NCBI RefSeq assembly: GCF_023078495.1
Contig: NZ_CP095742.1
Location: 3,348,001-3,412,000 of the forward strand
Origin: Luteibacter aegosomatissinici
Lineage (GTDB): Bacteria > Pseudomonadota > Gammaproteobacteria > Xanthomonadales > Rhodanobacteraceae
Direction: 5' to 3'
DNA: 64,000 nucleotides
Shown: positions 53,113 through 64,000 of the stretch, piece by piece
Layout of the letters: the number at the start of each line of letters is the position of its first letter
Numbering within the stretch: the stretch's first letter is position 1
Translations under genes and position numbers: made by a program
The notes under the pieces: generated by a model
What the model saw: the letters and a program-made list of their open reading frames with translations, nothing else
Database searches by the model: none
What the model was told of the DNA's origin: nothing

Positions 53113-55349
53113 AGGGTCACCAGCAGGCTGTAGATGCCCTGGAACAGGGCGGCGAAGTCCGAAGTCCAGCGGCGCGTCGCGGCGTGGTTCGCCTCCACCG
53201 TGCGGCTGTCGTTGAGCTTGTTGCTGTCGAGGTAGATCTTCTGCTCCGGATCAAGCTCGGCGGATTTGGCCTTCACCGGTTTGGTGAACTCAAAACGCGC
53301 CCAGCGCCGCTGGTCATCCCAGCGTACGGTCTCCACCGAATCATCCGCGAAGGTCACCTTCAACACCTGCGGCACGGGTGCGCCATCGCGCCACACGGTC
53401 ACGATCGTGCGGTACGGAAACGGCCCCGTGCCCGGCTTTGCATCGGGGTGCGCCTTTTTCCATGCATCGCGCTTCTTGTCGATCGCTTCATCGTTATCGT
53501 CGCTCGACAGCTCCACGCGCTTGCCATCCTTCACCGAGGTGCCGGCCAGCGGCAGTACTTCCTCGCTCGTGATGTCCTTCACCTGGTCATCGATGCGGTC
53601 CGTACCGTAGACATACTGGTCGAACACCTGCGCGACCACATCGGGCTTCCCCGATACCTCGGCCAGCGTGGCCTGCAGGTCGCCGATGCCCGGATGACGG
53701 AAGTGCCAGGTCGCGTAGTACTGGCGGAATGCTTTCTCCGTCACATCCTTTCCAAGGCGCTCTTCGAGGTCGTGCATGGCCGTCGCCGTGCGCGAATACA
53801 CGGTGGCGTACTGCGAACTCGACAGGCGATCCCACGCGTTCTGGCCCAGCGGATCGCCGGGATGCGCCAGCGTGGCCATCATGCGTTCCAGCGCGAACAC
53901 GTTGATGGGCGGTTCCACGCCGAAGAACTGCCAGATCGGCTTCGTCAGGTAAACGTCCTGCTTGCGCTCGCGCAGCATGCGTTCATCCCAGTATTCGTTC
54001 AGCCCTTCGTCCAGCATGGGCTCTTCGAATTCGTTGGAGGCCAGCAAGCCGTAGAAGTAGCCATGGCCGAACTCATGGATGGTGACGAAATCGATGAACC
54101 ATTCCGAGAGTGTCTTCGGCTTCAGGTCCTTCGCGTTATCCGACGTGAAGAACGTCGGGTATTCCATGCCACCCGCTTCGCTGGCGTTGAACGGGGGGAT
54201 CACGCCCGTGATCGTCTTGTACGGGTAGGCGCCCAGCGTATTCGAGAAGTAGGTCAGCGAATCCGTGGTGGCCTTCAGTACCGGCTTCGCATCGACCTCG
54301 TATTCGGCCGGGTACAGCACCTTGACCTTGACCGTGGGGCTGCCCGGGCCGTTCCAGGTGGTTTCAATGGTCTTGAAGTCTGGCGCGGCCATCCATGCGA
54401 AGTCGTGCACATCGGCCTGGATGAAATGCCAGGTAAGGTCGTTGCCCTCCGGCACGGGATCGCCCTGTTGCTCGCCCACCGCAGCGACGGTGTACGCCTT
54501 GGGTACCGTCATGCGTACATCGAACTCGCCGAAGTCGGCGTAGAACTCGCTGTTGAAGTGGAACTCGTGGACATTCCAGCGCGGCTCGGTCGCGCCACGT
54601 TCACCGGGCAGTTCCAGGACGCCGATCTTGGGGAACCATTGGCCTACCAGGTGGAACTTGCCGACGTAGCCCGTGCGCTCGATGACCCGCGGCAACTGGC
54701 TGTGGAACGCCATGTCGAGCGTGACACTGCCACCGGCGGGTACCGGCTGGGCCAGGTCCACGCGTACCACGGTGTGATCCGTCGCCGGGCCGTTATCCGG
54801 GTGGACGTAGCGCCACTTCAGCGCGGCCCCATCCTGCTCCACATGCTGCAGGTCGATGTAGCCCCATTCGCCCTTCTTTACCTTGCCCACGCCGCGCGAG
54901 CCGCCGTCGGGTGCGAGCACCTGGCGCTCACTGAAGAACGTACTGCCCTCACCTTCGAAGGCGTTGAGGTAAAGGTGCAGGAAAACCGCCGAGACCGGCC
55001 GGTCGCTGCGGTTACGCCACGTCAGCTGCTGCTGCCCGTCGACGGTGTGCTTCTCAGGATCGAGCCTGGCCTGGATGCGGTACGAAACCACCCGGTCGGA
55101 TAGCGTCGCTTCGCTACCGGTACGCGGACCGCCCCATGCCGTAGGCGCACTCGGCGTGCGCACGTACGCGGCGTGCGGCGACGCGAAAGGGATCTCGACA
55201 GGGACGGCGGGCGCGGCGACCGTACTGGCCGCGGCAGGCGCCGGCGGTGGCGCCGTGGGTGCCGGCGGGCTCTGGGCCCAGGCGGCGGTGGCGCAAGAAA
55301 ACGCGCCCGCGATGACAAGACGTACGACCCTGGCTGCCTCGCGGCGCAT
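53109..55349 (-). CDS. Secreted M1-family zinc aminopeptidase-like protein
   Basis: 746 residues with a signal peptide (about 1-25), a Pro/Ala-rich spacer (26-50), an M1-like N-terminal beta domain and a gluzincin domain. The zinc site is HEFGH at 425-429 with Glu448 eighteen residues later (HExxHx18E). Ahead of it SEAGGMEYPTF holds the GxMEN-like substrate motif, with Tyr in place of Asn. GGGAGGGTGGAAG precedes the ATG. Confidence 0.9.
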   Translation of the reverse strand: MRREAARVVRLVIAGAFSCATAAWAQSPPAPTAPPPAPAAASTVAAPAVPVEIPFASPHAAYVRTPSAPTAWGGPRTGSEATLSDRVVSYRIQARLDPEKHTVDGQQQLTWRNRSDRPVSAVFLHLYLNAFEGEGSTFFSERQVLAPDGGSRGVGKVKKGEWGYIDLQHVEQDGAALKWRYVHPDNGPATDHTVVRVDLAQPVPAGGSVTLDMAFHSQLPRVIERTGYVGKFHLVGQWFPKIGVLELPGERGATEPRWNVHEFHFNSEFYADFGEFDVRMTVPKAYTVAAVGEQQGDPVPEGNDLTWHFIQADVHDFAWMAAPDFKTIETTWNGPGSPTVKVKVLYPAEYEVDAKPVLKATTDSLTYFSNTLGAYPYKTITGVIPPFNASEAGGMEYPTFFTSDNAKDLKPKTLSEWFIDFVTIHEFGHGYFYGLLASNEFEEPMLDEGLNEYWDERMLRERKQDVYLTKPIWQFFGVEPPINVFALERMMATLAHPGDPLGQNAWDRLSSSQYATVYSRTATAMHDLEERLGKDVTEKAFRQYYATWHFRHPGIGDLQATLAEVSGKPDVVAQVFDQYVYGTDRIDDQVKDITSEEVLPLAGTSVKDGKRVELSSDDNDEAIDKKRDAWKKAHPDAKPGTGPFPYRTIVTVWRDGAPVPQVLKVTFADDSVETVRWDDQRRWARFEFTKPVKAKSAELDPEQKIYLDSNKLNDSRTVEANHAATRRWTSDFAALFQGIYSLLVTL

Positions 55350-55437
55350 GCTTCCACCCTCCCCTTGAATCCAGCGAGATTGCTGGACGACTCACAGGCC
55401 CGATATAGGCCAGAGGTCACGGGTGGCCGTCAAGTCG

Positions 55438-56295
55438 TCAGCCGGCGAATTCGCGCTCGCGCATCCATTTGGTGACGATCCATTTCTCGCCTTTGATCAC
55501 CGGCGCGCCGCCATGAAGTGACAGCGGATCCAGCGAGCCATCGGCGGCCGCGTATTCGAAATACAGGCCCTGGCCCTTGCGTGGCACATAGCTGAAGTCA
55601 ATGCGCGGGAAAATCGTTTCGCCGCCGGCCTGTACGTCATCCAGGTACATGATGAGCGTGGAGACCCGCTGGCCTCCGGTGGCAATATGGGGGGCGCTAC
55701 CCTTCTGGTCGGGCGCGAAATAATCGAAATGCGGCATGTACTCACCGCCGACGCCATAGCGCATGACCTGCAGCCCTTCGCCGTGTTCCTCCGATAGCTG
55801 CATGATCGCCGCCGTGCGGGCGTCGATGCGCTGGATCAGCTCATTCTCGGCACGGTGGAAATACGCGCCCTCGCTGGTACGGATGTCCATCACAGCGTTA
55901 CTTCCCGAATCGGGCGACACCACGGCGGAGCGCGCCAGGCGGGAACGAGCCATGGCCATGAGGCCATCGCACTCCGCGGCATCGAGCACGTTATCCAGGA
56001 CAGCGATGACCGGGCGGGCCACGCGCACCAGGACACGGATCTCCCGATCGGGCGCATGGATGACATGCCCAGGCGCCAGCCGGCTGGTGAATTCATGGGC
56101 ACCGGCATCGTCCGCCCATGGCGGCGCGGCGCCACCAAAGACCGCATCGGCAATCGCATCGCGCGCCACGCGCTCGTCGAATTGATGCTCCTTCATGGTG
56201 GCGAGCAGCTCGGCGGGGGCATTGCCACCGGCGAGCGCCTCGCCGATCCAGCGATGCCAATCCGGCGTAACCTTGGTATGTCGGCGTGCTTGCAT
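55438..56295 (-). CDS. Prolyl 4-hydroxylase-like 2OG-Fe(II) oxygenase
   Basis: 285 residues. The C-terminal double-stranded beta-helix domain has the HxD iron motif in GEYMPHFDYFAPD, the distal His in LSLHGGAPVIKGEKW and the 2-oxoglutarate Lys just after it. GQRVSTLIMYLDDVQAGGETIFP is typical of the P4H alpha branch. The N-terminal 90 residues contain a helical segment like those in bacterial P4H proteins. The start may be ATG 56295 or 56310. Confidence 0.88.
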   Translation of the reverse strand: MQARRHTKVTPDWHRWIGEALAGGNAPAELLATMKEHQFDERVARDAIADAVFGGAAPPWADDAGAHEFTSRLAPGHVIHAPDREIRVLVRVARPVIAVLDNVLDAAECDGLMAMARSRLARSAVVSPDSGSNAVMDIRTSEGAYFHRAENELIQRIDARTAAIMQLSEEHGEGLQVMRYGVGGEYMPHFDYFAPDQKGSAPHIATGGQRVSTLIMYLDDVQAGGETIFPRIDFSYVPRKGQGLYFEYAAADGSLDPLSLHGGAPVIKGEKWIVTKWMREREFAG

Positions 56296-56325
56296 GGCGC
56301 CATTGTGCATCGACCGGGGGGTTCC

Positions 56326-56802
56326 ATGCAGTCCATCGTCCGCGCCACGTTCGTCGCTGCCGTATTCGCCTTCACCACCATTGCCTGGGGAGCCAGCATG
56401 ACGCACCACGCCAAGGGCCGTTTCGACGTGAAGATCGCCCCGACCGGCCAGCCCGATACCGGGCCCGGATCCGTGCTGGGGCAGATGAGCCTGGAGAAAA
56501 CCTTCCATGGCGGCATGACCGGTACATCCAGGGGCACCATGCTCACGGCATCCAGCGTGGAAAAGGTCGATTCCGGCGTCTACGTGGCGGTGGAGCGCTT
56601 CACCGGCACGGTGGACGGCAAGAAGGGCAGCTTCGCCCTCGCTCATCGTGGCGTGCAGGCTAACGGCGGTCGCGAACTGCTGATCACGATCGTGCCGGAT
56701 ACGGGCTCGGAGGAGCTGCAAGGCATCTCGGGCACCTTCGCCATCGAGATCGGGCCGGATGGCGCGCACAGCTACGACCTGGCTTACTCACTGCCTGATT
56801 GA
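56326..56802 (+). CDS. DUF3224-family exported protein
   Basis: 158 residues: a signal peptide (about 1-22) and a beta-barrel-like domain with [31 protein letters not shown] and a late [21 protein letters not shown]. This fits the DUF3224 family (allene-oxide-cyclase-like fold), whose function is not known. It is divergent from the oxygenase gene by 30 bp and overlaps the convergent GIY-YIG gene by 19 bp. Confidence 0.82.
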
Positions 56803-57044
56803 GCGCCCAGCCACGCCAGCTTTTTTGCCTTGGGCAGGCGTTTAATCTCGTACTCTGCGCGCGAGGCGGCGGAGCGATCGGGGAACGCCCGGGCGCCAAG
56901 CAGTTTCACGGGCGGGTTAGCCCGCGTATAGCGGGCGCCCTTGCCCGCCGCGTGCGCGGCATAACGCGCATCGAGGTCATTGGTGATGCCGGCGTACCAG
57001 CTGCCATTCCGGCATTCGATGAGATAGACGTACCACATACCCAA
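56784..57044 (-). CDS. GIY-YIG nuclease-family small protein
   Basis: 86 residues, a single GIY-YIG fold: [31 protein letters not shown] with the Arg and the later [16 protein letters not shown] helix. It matches the UPF0213/YhbQ group, thought to act on DNA but poorly characterised. Its 3' end overlaps that of the DUF3224 gene. Confidence 0.92.
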
Positions 57045-57058
57045 AGCATAATGCCCCG

Positions 57059-58117
57059 ATGAGCTACGACCTCGCCGTAAACCTCCCGCTGCGTGCCGCC
57101 CCCGTCGCCCGCCTGCGCGAAGCGCTGGCCAGCTTCCCGCTGGATGATGGCCTGCTTGCTTACCCGGCGCCCGAAGGCGGCCTGGCGGTCCGCGAGGCCA
57201 TCGCCGGGTGGATGCGGCGCCACAGCGGGTTCGCTGCGGTCGACCCGCGGCGCCTGCTGCTGACCATCGGGGCGCGGCACGGGCTCGTGCTCGCTCTGGA
57301 AGAAACCTGTGCGCCAGGCGATACCTTGCTGATGGAAGAACTCACCTTCCATGGCTTTCGCCTGGGTGTCCTGGCCCATGGTGTCCGGCCCGCGGCGGTC
57401 GCCATGGACGATGAAGGCATGCGCCCCGATGCGCTGGAAGAGGCGGTGCACCGAACCGGCGCCCGTACCGCCTATGTGCAGCCAACACTGCACAACCCCA
57501 CGACAGCGACCATGTCGTTGCAGCGGCGCGAGGCCATCGTCGAGGTGGCGCGACGGCTGGACCTTACCCTGATCGAGGGTGATGTGTACGCCGCGCTTGG
57601 CTGGCAAGGCGGCGATCCACTCCCTGCCCTGGCCGAACTGGCACCGGAGCGGGTCCTGCACGCCGGCGGCATGGGCAAGGTGCTGGGTCCCGGCTTGCGG
57701 ATCGGCTGGCTGCTGGCACCCGATGACGGCACGCACCACCGCCTGACCGAGTCCCTGCAACTGGCCACCGACGGTCTCGCCCCCTTCCTGCCCGCCATCG
57801 TGGCGGGCTGGATGGCTGACGGCACGGCGGATAGCCTGCTCGACACGCTTGCGGCCTCGATGCGCGACCGCAACCTGCTGGCCCGCGAGATCCTCGGTGA
57901 GCGCCTGCGCACCAGCGGCGGCATGCACGCCTGGCTGCCCCGTGACGACGCGGATGCCGTCTACGACCGGGCACGGTCCGCCGGCGTGCTGGTGACACCA
58001 CCGGTGCCGTTCAACGCCGAGGGTGGCACCGGCCGCGGGCTCCGGGTATGCCTGGGCGCCGAGGAGGGCCCCGGCCGGTTGGAACAGGCGCTCGCAACGC
58101 TGGCCAGCGTGCTTTAG
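57059..58117 (+). CDS. MocR-like fold-I PLP aminotransferase without a DNA-binding domain
   Basis: 352 residues resembling the C-terminal part of MocR/PdxR regulators: [20 protein letters not shown] near the start, [28 protein letters not shown], and the PLP Lys in [15 protein letters not shown]. No winged helix precedes it. It may be a free aminotransferase or a regulator remnant. Its stop overlaps that of tcdA by 4 bp. Confidence 0.82.
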
Positions 58118-58932
58118 GCCTTCTTCGCGGCCGTAAGTTTCTCGAGCGCCTTGCCAACAGCGGCAAACGCGAACGCACCCGTCACGTGGGTCGCGGCACC
58201 CAGGCCGCCGCCACAATCGAGCTTCAGCGCATCGCTGCCGGGCGGCCTGATGCCACACACGCTGCCATCGGCCTGGGGATACTGCACGTTCTGGAGCGAA
58301 TACACCGCGGAGACGCCGAAGAACCGATCGGGGTTACGCGGGAAGTTGTATTCCTGGCGGAGGCGCTTGCGAATCATGCTGAGCATGGCGTCGTGCTCGG
58401 TGCGTGACAGGTCGCGGACGCGCACCTGGGTCGGATCCGTGCGACCGCCCGCCGATCCCACGGTCACCAGGGGCACCTTGCGGCGACGGCACCACACGAT
58501 CGTCTCCAGCTTCACCTTCATGGCATCGCACGCGTCGATCACCACGTCGTAATTGCGGTTCAGTAACTCATCCAGCGTGGACGGGGTGAGGAACCGCTCC
58601 ATCCCTTCCAGCCGAATGGTGGGGTTGATGGCATGGGCGCGCTCGGCGATCACACCCACTTTCGGCTTGCCGTACTGCCCGTCCAGGGCATGCAGCTGGC
58701 GGTTCGTGTTCGACAGGCAGACATCGTCGCCATCGATGAGCGTGAGCCGCCCGATCCCGCTCCGGGCCAGCGCCTCGGCCGCCCACGACCCTACCCCGCC
58801 GATGCCGATGACGCACACGTGCGCTTGGGCGAGGCGGTCCAGGGTGCCGCGGCCGTAGAGCCGCTCGATGCCAGCGAAACGCTCGGCCTGGGCCGTGCTC
58901 ACATGAATCTCTGGGTGGGAATGTGTGTGCAT
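58114..58932 (-). CDS. tcdA: tRNA threonylcarbamoyladenosine dehydratase
   Basis: Cyclises t6A37 of ANN-decoding tRNAs to ct6A. 272 residues, E1-like fold. Nucleotide site VCVIGIGGVGSWAAEALARSG, then LIDGDDVCLSNTNRQ, VIDACDAMKVKLE and DLSRTEHDAMLSMIRKRL. The start is ATG 58932 or 58950. It is divergent from the quorum-sensing operon. Confidence 0.93.
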   Translation of the reverse strand: MHTHSHPEIHVSTAQAERFAGIERLYGRGTLDRLAQAHVCVIGIGGVGSWAAEALARSGIGRLTLIDGDDVCLSNTNRQLHALDGQYGKPKVGVIAERAHAINPTIRLEGMERFLTPSTLDELLNRNYDVVIDACDAMKVKLETIVWCRRRKVPLVTVGSAGGRTDPTQVRVRDLSRTEHDAMLSMIRKRLRQEYNFPRNPDRFFGVSAVYSLQNVQYPQADGSVCGIRPPGSDALKLDCGGGLGAATHVTGAFAFAAVGKALEKLTAAKKA

Positions 58933-58941
58933 TATCTCATA

Positions 58942-58969
58942 TTGAAACAACAGGCCCGTCGGCTATGCT
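58942..58969 (+). promoter_or_regulatory. Sigma70-type promoter of the cytochrome-lqsS-lqsR unit
   Basis: TTGAAA (58942-58947) and TATGCT (58964-58969) are separated by 16 bp. The ATG of the first gene is 28 bp after the -10 box. No regulator-binding inverted repeat was seen. Confidence 0.62.
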
Positions 58970-58997
58970 GACGGCCACGCTAAGCCATGGAAAACCA

Positions 58998-59387
58998 ATG
59001 CGCGCGCTGCTCCTTGTCGTGCTGGGCCTCGCCATAGGCGCGCTGGGCGCCACGTTCGCGATCTCCGCCCTGCGCCAGGGCACGCCGTTCCACGACGGGG
59101 TCATGGCGGTCATGCAGCACCACATGGGTGCGCTACGGGCGAACGTGCGGGCAAAGCAGTGCGATGCCAAGGCCTCCGCGCTGCGTCTGGGCCGCCTTCG
59201 CCAGGAGGCCGGCGACATCACCGAGGCGTTCCCGGGCACGGACCCGGCATTCAGCCATGCCGCAGGCGCGCTCAGCACCGCCCTGGATTCGGCTATCGCT
59301 GCCCAGCCGGCCACGTGTGAGGCACTCACCGCCGCCCTCAAGCCGGTCGGCGATGCCTGTTCGGCATGCCACCAGCAGTACCGCTGA
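58998..59387 (+). CDS. Membrane-anchored cytochrome c-like protein
   Basis: 129 residues. An N-terminal signal anchor (RALLLVVLGLAIGALGATFAI) is followed by a helical domain with HDGVMAVMQHHMGALRANVRAKQC, and near the C-terminus the haem c motif CSACHQQYR. The layout resembles cytochrome c' (class II), with the CxxCH last. It is preceded by a promoter and GGAAA. Only 13 bp separate it from the sensor kinase gene, so they are probably co-transcribed. Confidence 0.8.
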   Translation: MRALLLVVLGLAIGALGATFAISALRQGTPFHDGVMAVMQHHMGALRANVRAKQCDAKASALRLGRLRQEAGDITEAFPGTDPAFSHAAGALSTALDSAIAAQPATCEALTAALKPVGDACSACHQQYR

Positions 59388-59400
59388 CCGGCGCCCACCC

Positions 59401-60783
59401 ATGCCCATGCCCTCGCCGGACGACCAGCCGCCACCGCGCCAACCCTTCCTGAAGCTGCAGCTATGGCTGCTGTTGCGGGCGCTGGCACGCTTCGAAACCA
59501 CCATGTGGCTGCGCACCCGTTACTCGCAGCCCAAGATGGTGGCCATCGGCGTGGTTGGCAGCTTTTCGCTGGCCGTTTACTACCCGATCTGGGCCTATCT
59601 GTTTCCGCAGCCGTACGAAAACCTGCCCATGCGGCTGGCATGCAGCGCCACGTTCATACCCCTGGCGCTGCTGCCGTGGTGGCCACGGCGCTTGCGTGCC
59701 TACCTCCCCACGTACTGGTACTTCGCCATGACCGTGGCAATGCCGTTTTTCGTCGGCTACATGACCCTGCGCAATGCCACGCCGCCATGGCTGATGACCC
59801 ACATGGCGTGCGTCATGCTGCTCATGATGCTGTTCGATATCGTGAGTTTCCTGCTCGTTTTCACGACCGGGAGCCTGCTCGCGGGGCTGGCGTTCGCGCT
59901 GTCGCCGGGGGCCGAGCTGCACGGGCAGACCATGCTGGAATACATCCCGCTGCTGCTCTTCGGCATCGTGGGGGGGGCGACCTGCACGGTTTCGTCCAAC
60001 ATGGCCGAGCAAAGCCGGATCGATGCCCTGACAGCCACCTCCAACAATATCGCCCACGAGCTGCGCACGCCGCTGGGCTCCCTGCGTATCGCGGCACGGG
60101 CGGTCGCCCGCTACATGCCCGACCTCATCCGCAGCCACCGGCTGGCCGAAAGCGAGGGCCTGGCCGTGCCTGAAATGCGAACCCAGAACCTGCACGCGCT
60201 GGAACGCAGCATCGGCGTCATGGAGCGCGAGGTCACCTACGCCAACACCATCATCGACATGCTGCTGCTCTCGGCACGCCCCATCGGCGAGGTGCCCCTG
60301 AGCCTGCTGGGCGCGCGTGATTGCGTGGAGCAGGCCCTGCGCCGGTTCCCCTACGGCTCCCGGGCCGAGCGCGAACGGATCACCCTCTCCCCCACGGGCG
60401 ATTTTCCCCTCCTGGGCGAAGAGACCCTGGTGGTCCACATCCTGTTCAACCTGCTACGTAACGCCCTGTTTCATACCGACCGTGCTGGTAAAGGCGAGAT
60501 CAAGGTGTATATAGAAGCAGGCGAAAACGGCAATCACGTCAGGGTTCACGATACCGGCCCAGGCATCCCGCCCGACGTACTTCCCCGTATTTTCAATCGT
60601 TTTTATTCGTATTCGAGCGATAGCGCGGGTACGGGCAACATAACCGGCCTCGGGATAGGTCTCGCTTTTTGTCGCGCGGCGATGGAGCATATGGGCGGAG
60701 GCATCGTTTGCCGTACCAATCTGGGTGAATTCACGGAATTCACTCTCACGTTCCCGATTACGGAGGCCGGGGTCCGGCAGTGA
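59401..60783 (+). CDS. lqsS: Alpha-hydroxyketone sensor histidine kinase, LqsS/CqsS-like
   Basis: 460 residues. The N-terminal half has about six TM helices (residues 46-66, 76-93, 100-120, 130-150, 155-172 and 180-200) with short loops, as in CqsS and LqsS, which sense membrane-permeant alpha-hydroxyketones. The kinase half has the H-box NNIAHELRTPLGSL with His219, N-box LFNLLRNALFH, G1 HDTGPGIPPDV and G2 GLGIGLAFC. No C-terminal receiver is fused, unlike Vibrio CqsS. Its stop overlaps the lqsR start (TGATG). Confidence 0.88.
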   Translation: MPMPSPDDQPPPRQPFLKLQLWLLLRALARFETTMWLRTRYSQPKMVAIGVVGSFSLAVYYPIWAYLFPQPYENLPMRLACSATFIPLALLPWWPRRLRAYLPTYWYFAMTVAMPFFVGYMTLRNATPPWLMTHMACVMLLMMLFDIVSFLLVFTTGSLLAGLAFALSPGAELHGQTMLEYIPLLLFGIVGGATCTVSSNMAEQSRIDALTATSNNIAHELRTPLGSLRIAARAVARYMPDLIRSHRLAESEGLAVPEMRTQNLHALERSIGVMEREVTYANTIIDMLLLSARPIGEVPLSLLGARDCVEQALRRFPYGSRAERERITLSPTGDFPLLGEETLVVHILFNLLRNALFHTDRAGKGEIKVYIEAGENGNHVRVHDTGPGIPPDVLPRIFNRFYSYSSDSAGTGNITGLGIGLAFCRAAMEHMGGGIVCRTNLGEFTEFTLTFPITEAGVRQ

Positions 60784-61820
60784 TGACGCTGAACTCGCAG
60801 GGCGATATCCAGCCCTTCCATTTCCCGACGACCACGGTACTTGTGGATGACCACGAGGAATACCTCGATGTCGTCCCGTTGCTGCTCGACCCCATGGTCC
60901 GGGTACGTACGTTCAGCTCGCCGCGCAGCGCGCTGGCCACGCTGGGCAATAACGGGAGCCGCCCGGTTCCCGGCGGTGGCTGGCTTTACCGCTGGAAAGA
61001 CCGCCCGTCCGAAACGCAGGAACTTGTGGCGCTGGATATCGACTCCATCCATCGCGTGGTCTACGACCCTGAACGCTTCGCCGAGATCTCGGTGGTCGTG
61101 GTGGATCAGGCCATGCCCGAGATGGATGGCATCACCTTCTGCAAACGGTTGCCGAATCCGCACATCGGCAAGATCCTGCTGACCGGTCGCGCCGATGACG
61201 CCACGGCGATCGATGCGTTCAATTCGGGGGTCATCGACCGTTTCATCCGCAAGAACGATCCCCTGGCGATCGAAAAGCTGCAGACCGCCATCGTGGAGCT
61301 GCAACGGCGCTATTTCGAACGCGCCAGCGCATTCGTCGCGGAAACCCTTGCCCTCGGCAACTTCCGTTTCCTGCGCGATCCCGCTTTCCGCGATGTGTTG
61401 CAAAGCGTTACCGCCACGTTCCAGCCGGTGGAATGTTATGTGCACTGCAACCCCACGGGCCTGTTGCTCGTCGACGCGTGGGGCATAGGCCGCTTCCTGC
61501 TGGTGCAAACCGACGAAGACCTCCGCACGCACTACGAAATCGCATCGGACCTGGGGGCACCCTCGGCCGTACTCGAAGCACTGCGAAGCGGCGAGGCCCT
61601 GCCCTGGTTCAACTCGCGCGACGGGTTCTATCACAAGGGCGTGGAAAACCCCGAAGCGCACATGTACCCCGCCACGGCCGTATCCGGGGAGCAGTGGTAC
61701 TACTACGCGCTCATCGATGACGTGGAGCGTTTCCGCCTCCAGCACGTCAAGTCGTACCGCAGCTGGCTGCGCGAGCAAGACCTGAGCCTGTCGGCCGACA
61801 GCCGCCCGCGCTTTATCTGA
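60783..61820 (+). CDS. lqsR: LqsR-like response regulator
   Basis: 345 residues. The receiver domain has the acidic pair Asp22-Asp23 (VLVDDHEEYLD), the phosphoacceptor Asp108 in VVVVDQAMPEMDG, the Thr in ILLTGRADD and the Lys in DRFIRKND. The gap between the acidic pair and the acceptor is about 85 residues rather than about 45, so some 40 residues are inserted. The C-terminal 150 residues contain no helix-turn-helix. Length and layout match Legionella LqsR, whose acceptor, from memory, is also Asp108. ATG 60783 or GTG 60780 is the start. Confidence 0.85.
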   Translation: MTLNSQGDIQPFHFPTTTVLVDDHEEYLDVVPLLLDPMVRVRTFSSPRSALATLGNNGSRPVPGGGWLYRWKDRPSETQELVALDIDSIHRVVYDPERFAEISVVVVDQAMPEMDGITFCKRLPNPHIGKILLTGRADDATAIDAFNSGVIDRFIRKNDPLAIEKLQTAIVELQRRYFERASAFVAETLALGNFRFLRDPAFRDVLQSVTATFQPVECYVHCNPTGLLLVDAWGIGRFLLVQTDEDLRTHYEIASDLGAPSAVLEALRSGEALPWFNSRDGFYHKGVENPEAHMYPATAVSGEQWYYYALIDDVERFRLQHVKSYRSWLREQDLSLSADSRPRFI

Positions 61821-62038
61821 CCCAATCCCTAACAGCGTCCTGCTGACACCCCAGGTGCCGGATCCACCGGCGCCAAGGGGTGCGCATGCCTATATGCTCG
61901 TGGCGTGGTCGCCGCGGCAGCATCGTTTGCCGGCGCGGCCCTCTCACCAATTTGGCAGGGCTCGCGCCCAGGCCGTTCAGGCCGGCGCGGATTGCCTCTC
62001 TCGTTTTCGCGCCTGCCCCAGGCGAGGCCGGCGTGCGC

Positions 62039-62058
62039 GTGTCGTTGCGAAACGACGC
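62039..62058 (+). promoter_or_regulatory. Hairpin with GCGA tetraloop in the lqsA leader
   Basis: GTCGTT-GCGA-AACGAC with two further outer pairs, about 43 bp before the lqsA ATG. The loop is of the GNRA kind. The whole 281-bp gap between lqsR and lqsA holds no gene; no convincing promoter hexamer pair was found in it. Confidence 0.35.
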
Positions 62059-62101
62059 CGTGGATATCGCCTGCCCTTAAAGCCAACGAGAGAGAGCCCC
62101 C

Positions 62102-63361
62102 ATGGAAAACGTTTCCGTCCTCCACCCCATCGTCAAGGCGCCGCAGCTACCCGAGTTCGTCCAGCGCCGGGTAGAACGATTTCACCGCGAACGCGTCGCC
62201 ATCGACTGGGGTGGTCGTCACATTTTACGTGGCCGCAAGCCCGCCGCGCGCGACCTGATGCTACAGAGCAACGACTACCTTGCCATCGCTGGCCATCCGG
62301 CCATCGTGGAAGCGCAACGCGCTGCGCTCGCCGCGGGTGGGCTGGGCATGATGATGTCCGCACTGTTCCAACAGGATGCCGACCAGCCCCTGCACCAGGC
62401 GGAGGCCGAACTCGCGCGTGCCGTCGGCAGCGAGGACGGCATACTGGCCCAGTCCGGATTCGCCGCCAACGTGGGCCTCATCCAGTCCATCGCCGGGGAA
62501 CGCGTCCCCGTGTACGTGGATATGCTGGCCCACGCGTCATTGTGGGAAGGCATCCGCAGCGCAGGCGCAAAGGCCGTGTCCATCCTGCATAACGATGTGC
62601 AGCACCTGGAGCGGCAATTGCTGCGAAACGGGCCAGGCGTCATCGTGGTCGATAGCGTGTACAGCACCAACGGCAGCCTCGCTCCGCTGCGAGAAATCTC
62701 AGAACTTTCGCAAGCGCATGGATGCGTCTTCGTCGTCGATGAATCGCATTCACTCGGCACGCACGGCATGCGTGGCGAAGGGCTCGTCGCCAGCCTTGGG
62801 CTCAACGACCGCGTCCACTTCATCACCGCCAGCCTTGCCAAAGCCTATTGCTCGCGCGCCGGCTTCATCGCATGCACGACCCGGTTCAAGGACTACTTTG
62901 GTTGCGAAGCATTGCCAGCCATCTTCAGTTCGTCGCTTCTTCCCCATGAACTCGCCGGGCTATCCGCTTCGCACAAGGTGATCCAGACCGAGACCTGGCG
63001 GCGCCAGCGCTTGCGCGACGTAACACGGTATGTACGCCGCGAACTCACTGCCATGGGCTACCCCATCGGCGACGGCACCGAGCAGATCATCGCCTTCGAA
63101 GCGGGCCAGGAAATCCTGACCGGCCACGTGCGCGATGTCATGGAGAAACATGGGGTGTTCGGCTCGGTGTTCAGCGCACCGGCAACGACAGTGAACCGCT
63201 CGCTGCTACGGCTGACCCTGAATGCCGGCATGGATGACCACGCCGTGCAGCACCTGCTGGATGCCTGCCGCAATGCGCGGGGCGAGATGAACCTGCCCGA
63301 GTGGAGCGCGAGCCGCCGGCTGCGCAAGGAGGAAGCCCGCGCCGCTGCCGAGGTGGCCTGA
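62102..63361 (+). CDS. lqsA: Alpha-hydroxyketone autoinducer synthase, LqsA/CqsA-like
   Basis: A PLP-dependent alpha-oxoamine synthase of 419 residues. CqsA joins an acyl-CoA to an amino-acid-derived substrate to make CAI-1-type signals; LqsA makes LAI-1. Visible are LQSNDYLAIAGHP, GLGMMMSALFQQDADQPLHQAEAELA, the PLP-contacting VDESHSLGTHG, and the PLP Lys247 in ITASLAKAYCSRAGF. The MMSALFQQDAD and SHSLG context is CqsA-like rather than Kbl/BioF-like. GAGAGAGAG precedes ATG 62102. The acyl chain used cannot be told from sequence. Confidence 0.9.
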   Translation: MENVSVLHPIVKAPQLPEFVQRRVERFHRERVAIDWGGRHILRGRKPAARDLMLQSNDYLAIAGHPAIVEAQRAALAAGGLGMMMSALFQQDADQPLHQAEAELARAVGSEDGILAQSGFAANVGLIQSIAGERVPVYVDMLAHASLWEGIRSAGAKAVSILHNDVQHLERQLLRNGPGVIVVDSVYSTNGSLAPLREISELSQAHGCVFVVDESHSLGTHGMRGEGLVASLGLNDRVHFITASLAKAYCSRAGFIACTTRFKDYFGCEALPAIFSSSLLPHELAGLSASHKVIQTETWRRQRLRDVTRYVRRELTAMGYPIGDGTEQIIAFEAGQEILTGHVRDVMEKHGVFGSVFSAPATTVNRSLLRLTLNAGMDDHAVQHLLDACRNARGEMNLPEWSASRRLRKEEARAAAEVA

Positions 63362-63387
63362 GGCTGCGCGGCGCGCGTCCGCCAGGT

Positions 63388-63693
63388 TCAGCGCAGCGTG
63401 ACGCGCCCGCGCAGGATGTCGCAAAACATGACCCAGTCACCCATCAGGCTGTAAAGCGGGTGCTTGAAGGTGGCTGGGCGGTTCTTCTCGAACACGAAGT
63501 GGCCGATCCATGCGAACCCATAGCCGCCCACCGGTGCAAGCCAGAGCCACGCCATGTGGCCGGTGGCGAAGGCAAGCAGGACGGCCACGATGACCAGCAA
63601 ACTGCCGGCGAAATGCAGCCGGCGGCAGCGCACGTCAGCGTGCTCGCCAAGGTAAAACGGATAGAACTCGCGAAACGTGGCGAAGGTACCCAT
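63388..63693 (-). CDS. DUF962/Mpo1-like membrane protein
   Basis: 101 residues with two TM segments (about 30-45 and 47-65). Conserved His residues lie in GEHADVRCRRLHFAGS, IGHFVFEKNRP and FKHPLYSLMGDW, matching the Mpo1/YGL010w (DUF962) family. Yeast Mpo1 is an Fe(II) dioxygenase of 2-hydroxy fatty acid alpha-oxidation; activity in bacteria is unproven. It is convergent with lqsA (26-bp gap). Confidence 0.88.
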   Translation of the reverse strand: MGTFATFREFYPFYLGEHADVRCRRLHFAGSLLVIVAVLLAFATGHMAWLWLAPVGGYGFAWIGHFVFEKNRPATFKHPLYSLMGDWVMFCDILRGRVTLR

Positions 63694-63706
63694 GGAAGGC
63701 TCCGCG

Positions 63707-64000
63707 TCAGTACGTAGGAAGTGGGATCCGCTCGTGCTCGTCGCCGGGTACGACCGGGAAGCGCCCGGCCCGGTTGTTCCAGTCGGCCTTGGCCTGCTCG
63801 ATCAGGTCCTTTGAGCTGGCAACGAAATTCCACCACAGGTGGCGCTCGCCATCGAGTGGCGCACCACCGAAAAGCATCACGAGGGAATCCTGCGTTGCTT
63901 CAAGCACCGGCGGTTCGCCATCGTGCGCGACGGCCATGTCGAGTGCATTGAGTTCGAGGCCTCCAAAGCTTGCAGCCCCTTCCACCACATACGCACCCCA
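63707..64000 (-). CDS. Pirin-family protein, N-terminus cut by window edge
   Basis: Only the C-terminal 97 codons are present; the frame is open at 64000. DSLVMLFGGAPLDGERHLWWNFVASSKDLIEQAKADW is the conserved C-terminal cupin segment of pirins, ending ERIPLPTY. Some pirins have quercetin dioxygenase activity; the metal-binding N-terminal cupin is outside the window. It may be co-transcribed with the DUF962 gene 13 bp on. Confidence 0.9.
   Translation of the reverse strand, partial: WGAYVVEGAASFGGLELNALDMAVAHDGEPPVLEATQDSLVMLFGGAPLDGERHLWWNFVASSKDLIEQAKADWNNRAGRFPVVPGDEHERIPLPTY

What the first reader, a model, noticed from the sequence alone, without database searches (positions are those of the whole stretch)
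58942..63361. Lqs/Cqs-type alpha-hydroxyketone quorum-sensing locus
A six-TM histidine kinase without a fused receiver, an LqsR-like regulator and a CqsA/LqsA-like synthase lie in order on one strand. The parts match Legionella lqsS, lqsR and lqsA, but the order (S-R-A) and the leading cytochrome gene differ from the Legionella layout (lqsA-lqsR-hdeD-lqsS) as I remember it. In a Xanthomonadales-like genome, better known for DSF fatty-acid signals, a second ketone-based signal would be notable.
Basis: partly seen in the sequence, partly recalled or inferred. Interest (0 to 1): 0.85.

Follow-up and report, generated by a model that had tools for sequence, protein, structure and literature searches.

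The report
Ketone quorum-sensing locus with RNA-gated synthase
This Luteibacter-type bacterium carries a complete Legionella/Vibrio-style gene set for making and sensing a ketone signal, and the signal-making gene is preceded by a conserved RNA structure that can hide its ribosome-binding site, hinting that signal production is gated at the RNA level.

Summary
The locus is real. The synthase (62102-63361) passes the curated cut-off for alpha-hydroxyketone autoinducer synthases (533.7 vs 428 bits) and groups with CqsA-type enzymes, apart from eight other superfamily rows (100/100). The kinase (59401-60783) has the CqsS signature and ligand-site residues W,T,F,C. The regulator (60783-61820) is LqsR-like end to end. 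All 23 searched genomes of the genus have the synthase.

Two corrections. The cytochrome gene is a neighbour, present in 207 of 233 family genomes and left in place at lqs-free sites. DSF is not a first signal here: none of the 34 synthase genomes has RpfF at E 1e-20.

Two new points. A covarying RNA leader (61996-62096) can pair an anti-SD with the Shine-Dalgarno region (12 of 23 pairs change on both sides, 0/500 shuffles); found once per Luteibacter genome, recurring in two other genera, no Rfam match. Two related genera keep kinase and regulator without synthase; where examined (8 of 10 genomes) they sit at the same site with altered ligand-site residues. Signal, targets and RNA trigger are unknown.

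The parts
59401..60783 (+). LqsS/CqsS-type sensor histidine kinase, 460 aa, no receiver domain
   Evidence: HATPase_c 2.5e-23; HisKA 6.2e-05, 23.4 bits, under its cut-off of 26.9; CqsS signature FPQPYENL and residues W/T/F/C at the positions of V. cholerae CqsS W104/S107/F162/C170; the only such sensor domain in the genome at E 0.01
60783..61820 (+). LqsR-type response regulator, 345 aa, receiver Asp D108
   Evidence: PDB 6sy9 'Response regulator' 2.5e-49 over residues 10-335 of the 346-residue reading from GTG 60780 (that 6sy9 is LqsR is recalled); 14-row alignment with invariant D22, D23, D108, T134, K157; the only copy in the genome at E 1e-30
61977..62104 (+). Structured RNA leader of the synthase gene (R1 model hit)
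   Evidence: R1 104.4 bits (this sequence is one of the 23 the model was built from); pair counts; alifold against controls; cross-genus hits of a separate model
61996..62005 (+). Leader stem P1, 5' strand (anti-Shine-Dalgarno CTCTCTCGTT)
   Evidence: pairs with 62085-62094
62008..62035 (+). Leader hairpin P2, with invariant GGCGAGG
62020..62025 (+). Possible pseudoknot, 5' strand AGGCGA, pairing with TCGCCT 62067-62072
   Evidence: complementary segment in 22 of 23 leaders; mostly invariant, one of six pairs with a two-sided change
62040..62057 (+). Leader hairpin P3
   Evidence: 4 of 5 pairs with two-sided changes
62085..62096 (+). Leader stem P1, 3' strand, and Shine-Dalgarno region GAGAGAGAG
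62102..63361 (+). Alpha-hydroxyketone-type autoinducer synthase (CqsA/LqsA family), 419 aa, PLP lysine K247
   Evidence: NF005526 533.7 bits, cut-off 428; V. cholerae CqsA 3hqt 1.5e-100, 44.7% identity (169 of 378); tree
58998..59387 (+). Flanking gene, not specific to the system: cytochrome c'-like protein with CXXCH and a hydrophobic N-terminus
   Evidence: Cytochrom_C_2 6e-09; in 207 of 233 family genomes; stays at lqs-free sites
63388..63693 (-). Flanking gene: Mpo1-like
   Evidence: PF06127 1.7e-40; directly beside cyt at 15 of 17 lqs-free sites examined
58114..58950 (-). Flanking gene: tcdA
   Evidence: NF011696 306.8 bits, cut-off 304; beside cyt at 17 of 17 lqs-free sites examined

Best explanation
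A complete Lqs/Cqs-type alpha-hydroxyketone quorum-sensing locus, held at a fixed chromosomal site in part of the Rhodanobacteraceae. The synthase condenses an acyl-CoA with an SAM-derived amino donor to an aminoketone/hydroxyketone (inferred from CqsA). The signal is read by the six-TM kinase in a CqsS-type pocket (inferred from signature and ligand-site residues), which exchanges phosphate with D108 of the LqsR-type regulator (inferred); its output and targets are unknown. Translation of the synthase is gated by a structured leader that can pair an anti-SD with the Shine-Dalgarno region (structure supported by covariation; gating and trigger inferred). The cytochrome gene is a syntenic neighbour.
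For: Synthase: curated equivalog cut-off passed; full-length CqsA match; PLP lysine and 6 of 9 published acyl-pocket residues kept (residues from passages of PMC3285556); 33-row CqsA/LqsA-type clade 100/100 on a branch of 2.16. Kinase: W, S/T, F at three ligand positions in 57 of 57 kinase rows whose stretch holds a synthase (70 rows, 64 distinct). Regulator: full-length 6sy9 match, D108. Genus-wide: 23 of 23. Leader: 94.8% of cells paired, 12 of 23 pairs changed on both sides, 0 of 500 shuffles reaching, slid controls 3-5 pairs; alifold z -3.11 (23 Luteibacter) and -6.65 (7 of genus g39), both 0/60; control before cyt (20 rows) z 0.38, control before the leader no structure; a model from g39 alone finds both g2 leaders and 4 of 23 Luteibacter leaders (E 6e-4 to 0.46) at the homologous place.
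Against: No chemical or genetic evidence. CqsA pocket residues V32, F257, C346 are L42, C268, S358 here. SD pairing is weak (under 4 expected pairs) in 7 of 32 leaders; a CUCUC-type or outer P1 helix is the best upstream-SD helix in 24 of 34. The Luteibacter model misses the g39 and g2 leaders and finds that of Oleiagrimonas only weakly (18.7 bits, E 0.022); the g39 model misses 19 of 23 Luteibacter leaders. A second pairing of the anti-SD, with GAGGC of P2, shows no covariation (230/500), so an on/off rearrangement is not supported by pair counts. The structure was chosen on the alignment it was counted on, and related rows can exceed shuffles without structure (the tool's own caution). No transcription start is known.
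Confidence: 0.82

Rival explanations
1. The synthase is a BioF/Kbl/SPT-type metabolic enzyme next to an unrelated two-component pair.
For: Same superfamily: bioF model 230.7 bits.
Against: Below the bioF cut-off (426) and above that of the autoinducer synthase; tree 100/100 away from eight other superfamily rows; a kinase with the CqsS-type residues lies nearby in 57 of 61 synthase stretches examined, the four others being L119 (split contig), L125 and L126 (second copies) and L204 (Tistrella).
Confidence: 0.03
2. The cytochrome c'-like protein is a working part, for example a gas or redox sensor acting on the kinase.
For: Gap of 13 bases to the kinase gene; kept beside it in 36 of 40 in-family loci; NO and Lqs signalling meet in Legionella (passages of PMC11237717).
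Against: 207 of 233 family genomes have it, all 26 genera; it stays beside tcdA at 17 of 17 and beside mpo1 at 15 of 17 lqs-free sites.
Confidence: 0.07
3. The leader is a passive structure (transcript stability, insulation) or a DNA-level palindrome, not a regulator.
For: P2 is palindromic; no trigger known; SD pairing weak in 7 of 32.
Against: Covariation in three separate helices, one of which joins sites 80-100 nt apart and includes the Shine-Dalgarno region; no U-tract follows the hairpins (sequence).
Confidence: 0.3
4. The pair serves another ligand, or the system is decaying; the synthase is dispensable.
For: g23 and g27 keep HK-RR without synthase.
Against: In Luteibacter the synthase frame is open in 22 of 23 genomes (G016 has one TGA) and ligand residues are kept.
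Confidence: 0.1

Closest known systems
Lqs system of Legionella pneumophila (LqsA/LqsR/LqsS)
   Same: Same three parts; separate LqsR with receiver Asp D108 (passages)
   Different: Order S-R-A on one strand with kinase and regulator genes touching, so no hdeD between; only one sensor kinase of the type in the genome, where Legionella has LqsS and LqsT; structured synthase leader, whereas a published RNA-level control in Legionella is CsrA on lqsR mRNA (PMC5338858, passages)
Cqs system of Vibrio (CqsA/CqsS)
   Same: Synthase 41-45% identical; kinase sensor motif and ligand residues
   Different: CqsS is a hybrid kinase (recalled; long kinase ORFs); no LqsR-type gene beside it and synthase and kinase convergent in the six unnamed f22 loci (taken as Vibrio kin from the tree)
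Jqs system of Janthinobacterium HH01
   Same: Synthase, kinase and LqsR-type regulator in a non-pathogen (PMC3566124, passages)
   Different: Order synthase-kinase-regulator by gene numbers in that paper; no structured leader mentioned in the passages seen
PhcX of Ralstonia
   Same: LqsR-family regulator that outlived the synthase (PMC10653808, passages), as in g23/g27
   Different: There it moved next to the phc genes; here kinase and regulator stay at the family's lqs site

Membership tests
Lqs/Cqs-type alpha-hydroxyketone quorum sensing | CqsA/LqsA-family synthase | tested here: met
   NF005526 533.7 over 428 bits; tree
Lqs/Cqs-type alpha-hydroxyketone quorum sensing | PLP lysine and acyl pocket of CqsA | tested here: met
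   K247; 6 of 9 pocket residues identical, 3 differ
Lqs/Cqs-type alpha-hydroxyketone quorum sensing | Linked six-TM kinase with CqsS-type sensor | tested here: met
   PQPYENL; W/T/F/C
Lqs/Cqs-type alpha-hydroxyketone quorum sensing | Makes and responds to an alpha-hydroxyketone | not testable with these tools
   needs mass spectrometry and mutants
Lqs sub-type (as against Cqs) | Separate LqsR-type regulator, kinase without receiver | tested here: met
   S-R-A co-directional; kinase and regulator genes overlap by a base
DSF (Rpf) signalling in the same genome | RpfF synthase | tested here: not met
   RpfF query (3m6m 2.2e-93) finds 37 of 233 family genomes but none of the 23 Luteibacter at E 1e-20
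Known riboswitch or RNA family (leader) | Rfam match | tested here: not met
   none at gathering in 54000-64000; in 61821-62130 four rows up to E 10, all far under their gathering scores
Riboswitch | Binds a metabolite and switches expression | not testable with these tools
   needs in-line probing and reporter fusions

The most novel reading that the evidence does not exclude
The leader is a new class of cis-regulatory RNA (riboswitch, or attenuator opened by a small RNA or protein) that gates translation of an autoinducer synthase, so that a quorum signal is made only when a second intracellular input allows it; and two related genera are synthase-free listeners whose receptor pocket has been retuned to others' signals.
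Probability: 0.45. Interest if true: 0.8.

Novelty: new variant of a known kind. Interest (0 to 1): 0.6.

Why it matters
Functional work on ketone signalling, in the papers seen here, rests on a few hosts (Vibrio, Legionella, Janthinobacterium, Cupriavidus). Here it is carried by every searched genome of a genus in which the DSF synthase of its order was not found, beside family members with DSF, with empty sites, and with receptor only. That is a natural experiment on how a quorum-sensing channel is gained, lost and exchanged. A covarying leader that can hide the synthase's ribosome-binding site makes a direct question testable: what input, besides density, licenses signal production?

Tried and rejected
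Cytochrome as a component: given up after the family-wide count and the lqs-free sites. DSF beside AHK: rejected for this genome. RpfF was first sought through ECH_1 (eight matches): six were scanned with NCBIfam, all nearest to enoyl-CoA hydratase/crotonase models though under their cut-offs, and of these the three divergent ones (L168-L170) matched 3h0u best and RpfF not at E 1e-10; L167 and L171 were not scanned; hence the positive control from a same-order genome. Mutual exclusion of AHK and DSF synthases: 0 shared of 34 and 37 among 233 genomes (hypergeometric 0.0017), but at genus level 0 shared of 5 and 5 among 26 is not notable (0.31), so no claim is made. AHL synthase by PF00765: no match, but no control genome rang either, so uninformative. 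A switch helix between the anti-SD and P2: no covariation. The leader as a known RNA family: no. The leader before synthases of other families: not seen by eye in single folds of 18 such loci nor of the two second synthases (start codons guessed; Tistrella without a start), nor by R1. First numbering of the CqsS positions was wrong by nine residues; corrected, where W, S and F fall on the published letters. Rows dropped before the HK+RR tree: L045, L144, L145 (long branches), L193 (truncated), L172 (frame running upstream of the start); rows without a regulator could not enter. The support labels printed after re-rooting are shifted; the values in the report are read from its Newick string.
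Full report
Observation. Three + strand genes follow one another: kinase 59401-60783, regulator 60783-61820, synthase 62102-63361, with 281 bases between the last two. The window lies in a 4.99 Mb one-contig genome. Its genus is called Luteibacter here because genomes with the same genus label have kinase sequences identical to those of named Luteibacter records (L030/L129, L031/L153, L038/L131, L042/L130).

Synthase. NCBIfam NF005526 (alpha-hydroxyketone-type autoinducer synthase) scores 533.7 bits against a cut-off of 428; bioF scores 230.7 against 426, glycine C-acetyltransferase 197.1 against 460, serine palmitoyltransferase 196.5 against 640. V. cholerae CqsA (3hqt) matches at 1.5e-100, 169 of 378 identical; the PLP lysine is K247 (K236 in CqsA, recalled), and 6 of the 9 acyl-pocket residues listed in PMC3285556 (passages) are kept. 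In a 41-row tree the 33 CqsA/LqsA-type rows form one clade (100/100); three paralogues of this genome and five other rows lie outside, some on long branches. Rhodanobacteraceae rows are together (98/98 with the second copies of G020 and G021; 85/89 without).

Kinase. It aligns to CqsS through the sensor domain. Published ligand positions (PMC3376566, passages; PMC3285556, passages) were mapped through V. campbellii CqsS with its start nine residues upstream of the first Met, which puts W, S, F and F on the expected letters. The window has W, T, F, C. Of 74 loci given, 70 gave a kinase row, 64 distinct. In 57 of 57 rows with a synthase in the stretch the first three positions are W, S/T, F; the tail-length position varies (C, F, S, A, I, L).

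Regulator. 6sy9 matches over residues 10-335 at 2.5e-49; that 6sy9 is LqsR is recalled, a paper search for the code found nothing. D108 is the receiver Asp here as in Legionella. The regulator evolves slowest: 93-99% identity to four other Luteibacter against 77-94% (kinase) and 79-88% (synthase). Its output is unknown; the literature reports a degenerate GGDEF-like fold without detected activity in vitro (PMC10653808, passages).

Distribution and site. The synthase model passes its cut-off in 34 of 233 family genomes, 5 of 26 genera, including all 23 Luteibacter, and in 16 of 398 genomes drawn over the phylum. Kinase, regulator and synthase are co-directional in 39 of 40 in-family main-site loci; none of the 15 loci outside the family has that order. 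The cytochrome gene precedes in 36 of the 40 but occurs in 207 of 233 family genomes. At 17 lqs-free sites from 13 genera, cyt lies beside tcdA in 17 and mpo1 follows cyt directly in 15: the cassette stands in a conserved junction. In genus g39 no mpo1 was seen in the stretches, and in g2 it lies about 4 kb away. Single gain with repeated loss is the simplest reading, not proved.

Receptor-only relatives. LqsR-type regulators occur in 49 of 233 genomes at E 1e-30. g27 (6 genomes) and g23 (4) have one but no synthase. In the eight of these ten examined, kinase and regulator sit at the same site and tblastn finds no synthase remnant (best E 1.1); in G107 an M28 peptidase gene lies in the gap. 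In a 24-row kinase+regulator tree (five rows dropped first) g23+g27 join Luteibacter, Pinirhizobacter and Oleiagrimonas at 99.9/100, with the synthase-bearing g2 and g39 outside (from the Newick, rooted on other families), so loss is likelier than never having had it. All eight keep W but have A/I, L/M and A at the next three positions. This is one clade, so one event; three other synthase-free pairs (L183, L197, L198) keep F and C. Four family genomes (G099, G100, G127, G171) hold more distant LqsR-type genes.

DSF. An RpfF protein from a same-order genome (3m6m, 2.2e-93) finds homologues in 37 of 233 family genomes at E 1e-20, none in the 23 Luteibacter and none in any of the 34 synthase genomes.

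The leader. Folds of the 128 nt ending at the synthase ATG first showed it. In 23 Luteibacter leaders, stems P1 (upstream CUCUC with the GAGAG of the Shine-Dalgarno region), P2 (with invariant GGCGAGG), P3 and a possible pseudoknot give 94.8% paired cells; 12 of 23 pairs change on both sides (shuffles 4.0, 0 of 500; slides 3-5). P1 has two-sided changes in 3 of 3 counted pairs, P2 in 4 of 9, P3 in 4 of 5, the pseudoknot in 1 of 6 (mostly invariant; a complementary segment in 22 of 23). The structure was chosen on this same alignment, which favours it over slid versions. RNAalifold against column shuffles: z -3.11, 0/60; controls z 0.38 (128 nt before cyt, 20 rows) and no structure (128 nt before the leader); the leaders of seven g39 genomes give z -6.65, 0/60, with P1 again holding the Shine-Dalgarno region; on a P1-P2-P3 structure they pair in 92.7% of cells, 3 of 24 pairs with two-sided changes (19 of 500 shuffles reach that). 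Expected pairs between the SD zone and the upstream 50 nt average 7.5, against 4.0 (shuffled) and 3.4 (SD kept), 40 shuffles each; 25 of 32 leaders have 4 or more, 7 do not. The Luteibacter model hits once in each of 23 Luteibacter genomes, always before the synthase (it was built from these); elsewhere in 233 genomes, under the tool's stricter filters, only three matches at E 0.003-0.006, as chance allows. It does not find g39 or g2 leaders (one g39 leader, L118, at E 0.36-1.8); the model built from g39 alone finds both g2 leaders (1.8e-7, 1.9e-4) and 4 of 23 Luteibacter leaders, L007 (6e-4), L005 (0.017), L006 (0.13) and L013 (0.46), at the homologous place. No Rfam family fits.

Literature. 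Among the papers listed by searches for Luteibacter with lqsA, quorum sensing or autoinducer, and for family genera with cqsA (lists of 20 of 26, 20 of 88, 4 of 4 and 20 of 38), none is on this system in these bacteria, by titles and term counts. The one paper holding lqsA and riboswitch concerns Legionella CsrA (passages). PMC10653808 reports LqsR orthologues in 87 gammaproteobacterial genomes (passages); its figures and tables are not held, so Luteibacter may be among them. The library lacks most subscription papers.

Verdict. The gene set is a new member of a known kind; the co-directional layout, the structured synthase leader and the receptor-only relatives make it a new variant.

Noticed in passing
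L126 6022-7185 (G021) and L125 5950-7107 (G020): Two Luteibacter genomes carry a second, divergent synthase above the NF005526 cut-off (462.6 and 462.9 bits) with no kinase or regulator of this kind in the 13 kb stretch; that of G021 lies between a prolyl oligopeptidase gene and a corA gene next to type VI secretion genes.
   Followed up: partly
L144, L145, L045, upstream of the synthase: A palindrome of the form CCCTGTCA...TGACAGGG precedes the synthase in two unnamed f16 genomes and a Ramlibacter MAG, possibly an operator.
   Followed up: no
L183, L197, L198: A second, distant kinase + LqsR-type pair without synthase or cyt in the stretch, in four family genomes (G099, G100, G127, G171; three fetched).
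   Followed up: partly
G016:C1:27010-28242: The synthase match in one Luteibacter genome holds one in-frame TGA, perhaps a pseudogene or a sequencing error.
   Followed up: no
L114-L123, synthase leaders of g39: Two overlapping foldings (hairpin P2 against a longer pairing of its 3' strand with GGCTTGGTCC) compete in single-sequence and consensus folds.
   Followed up: no
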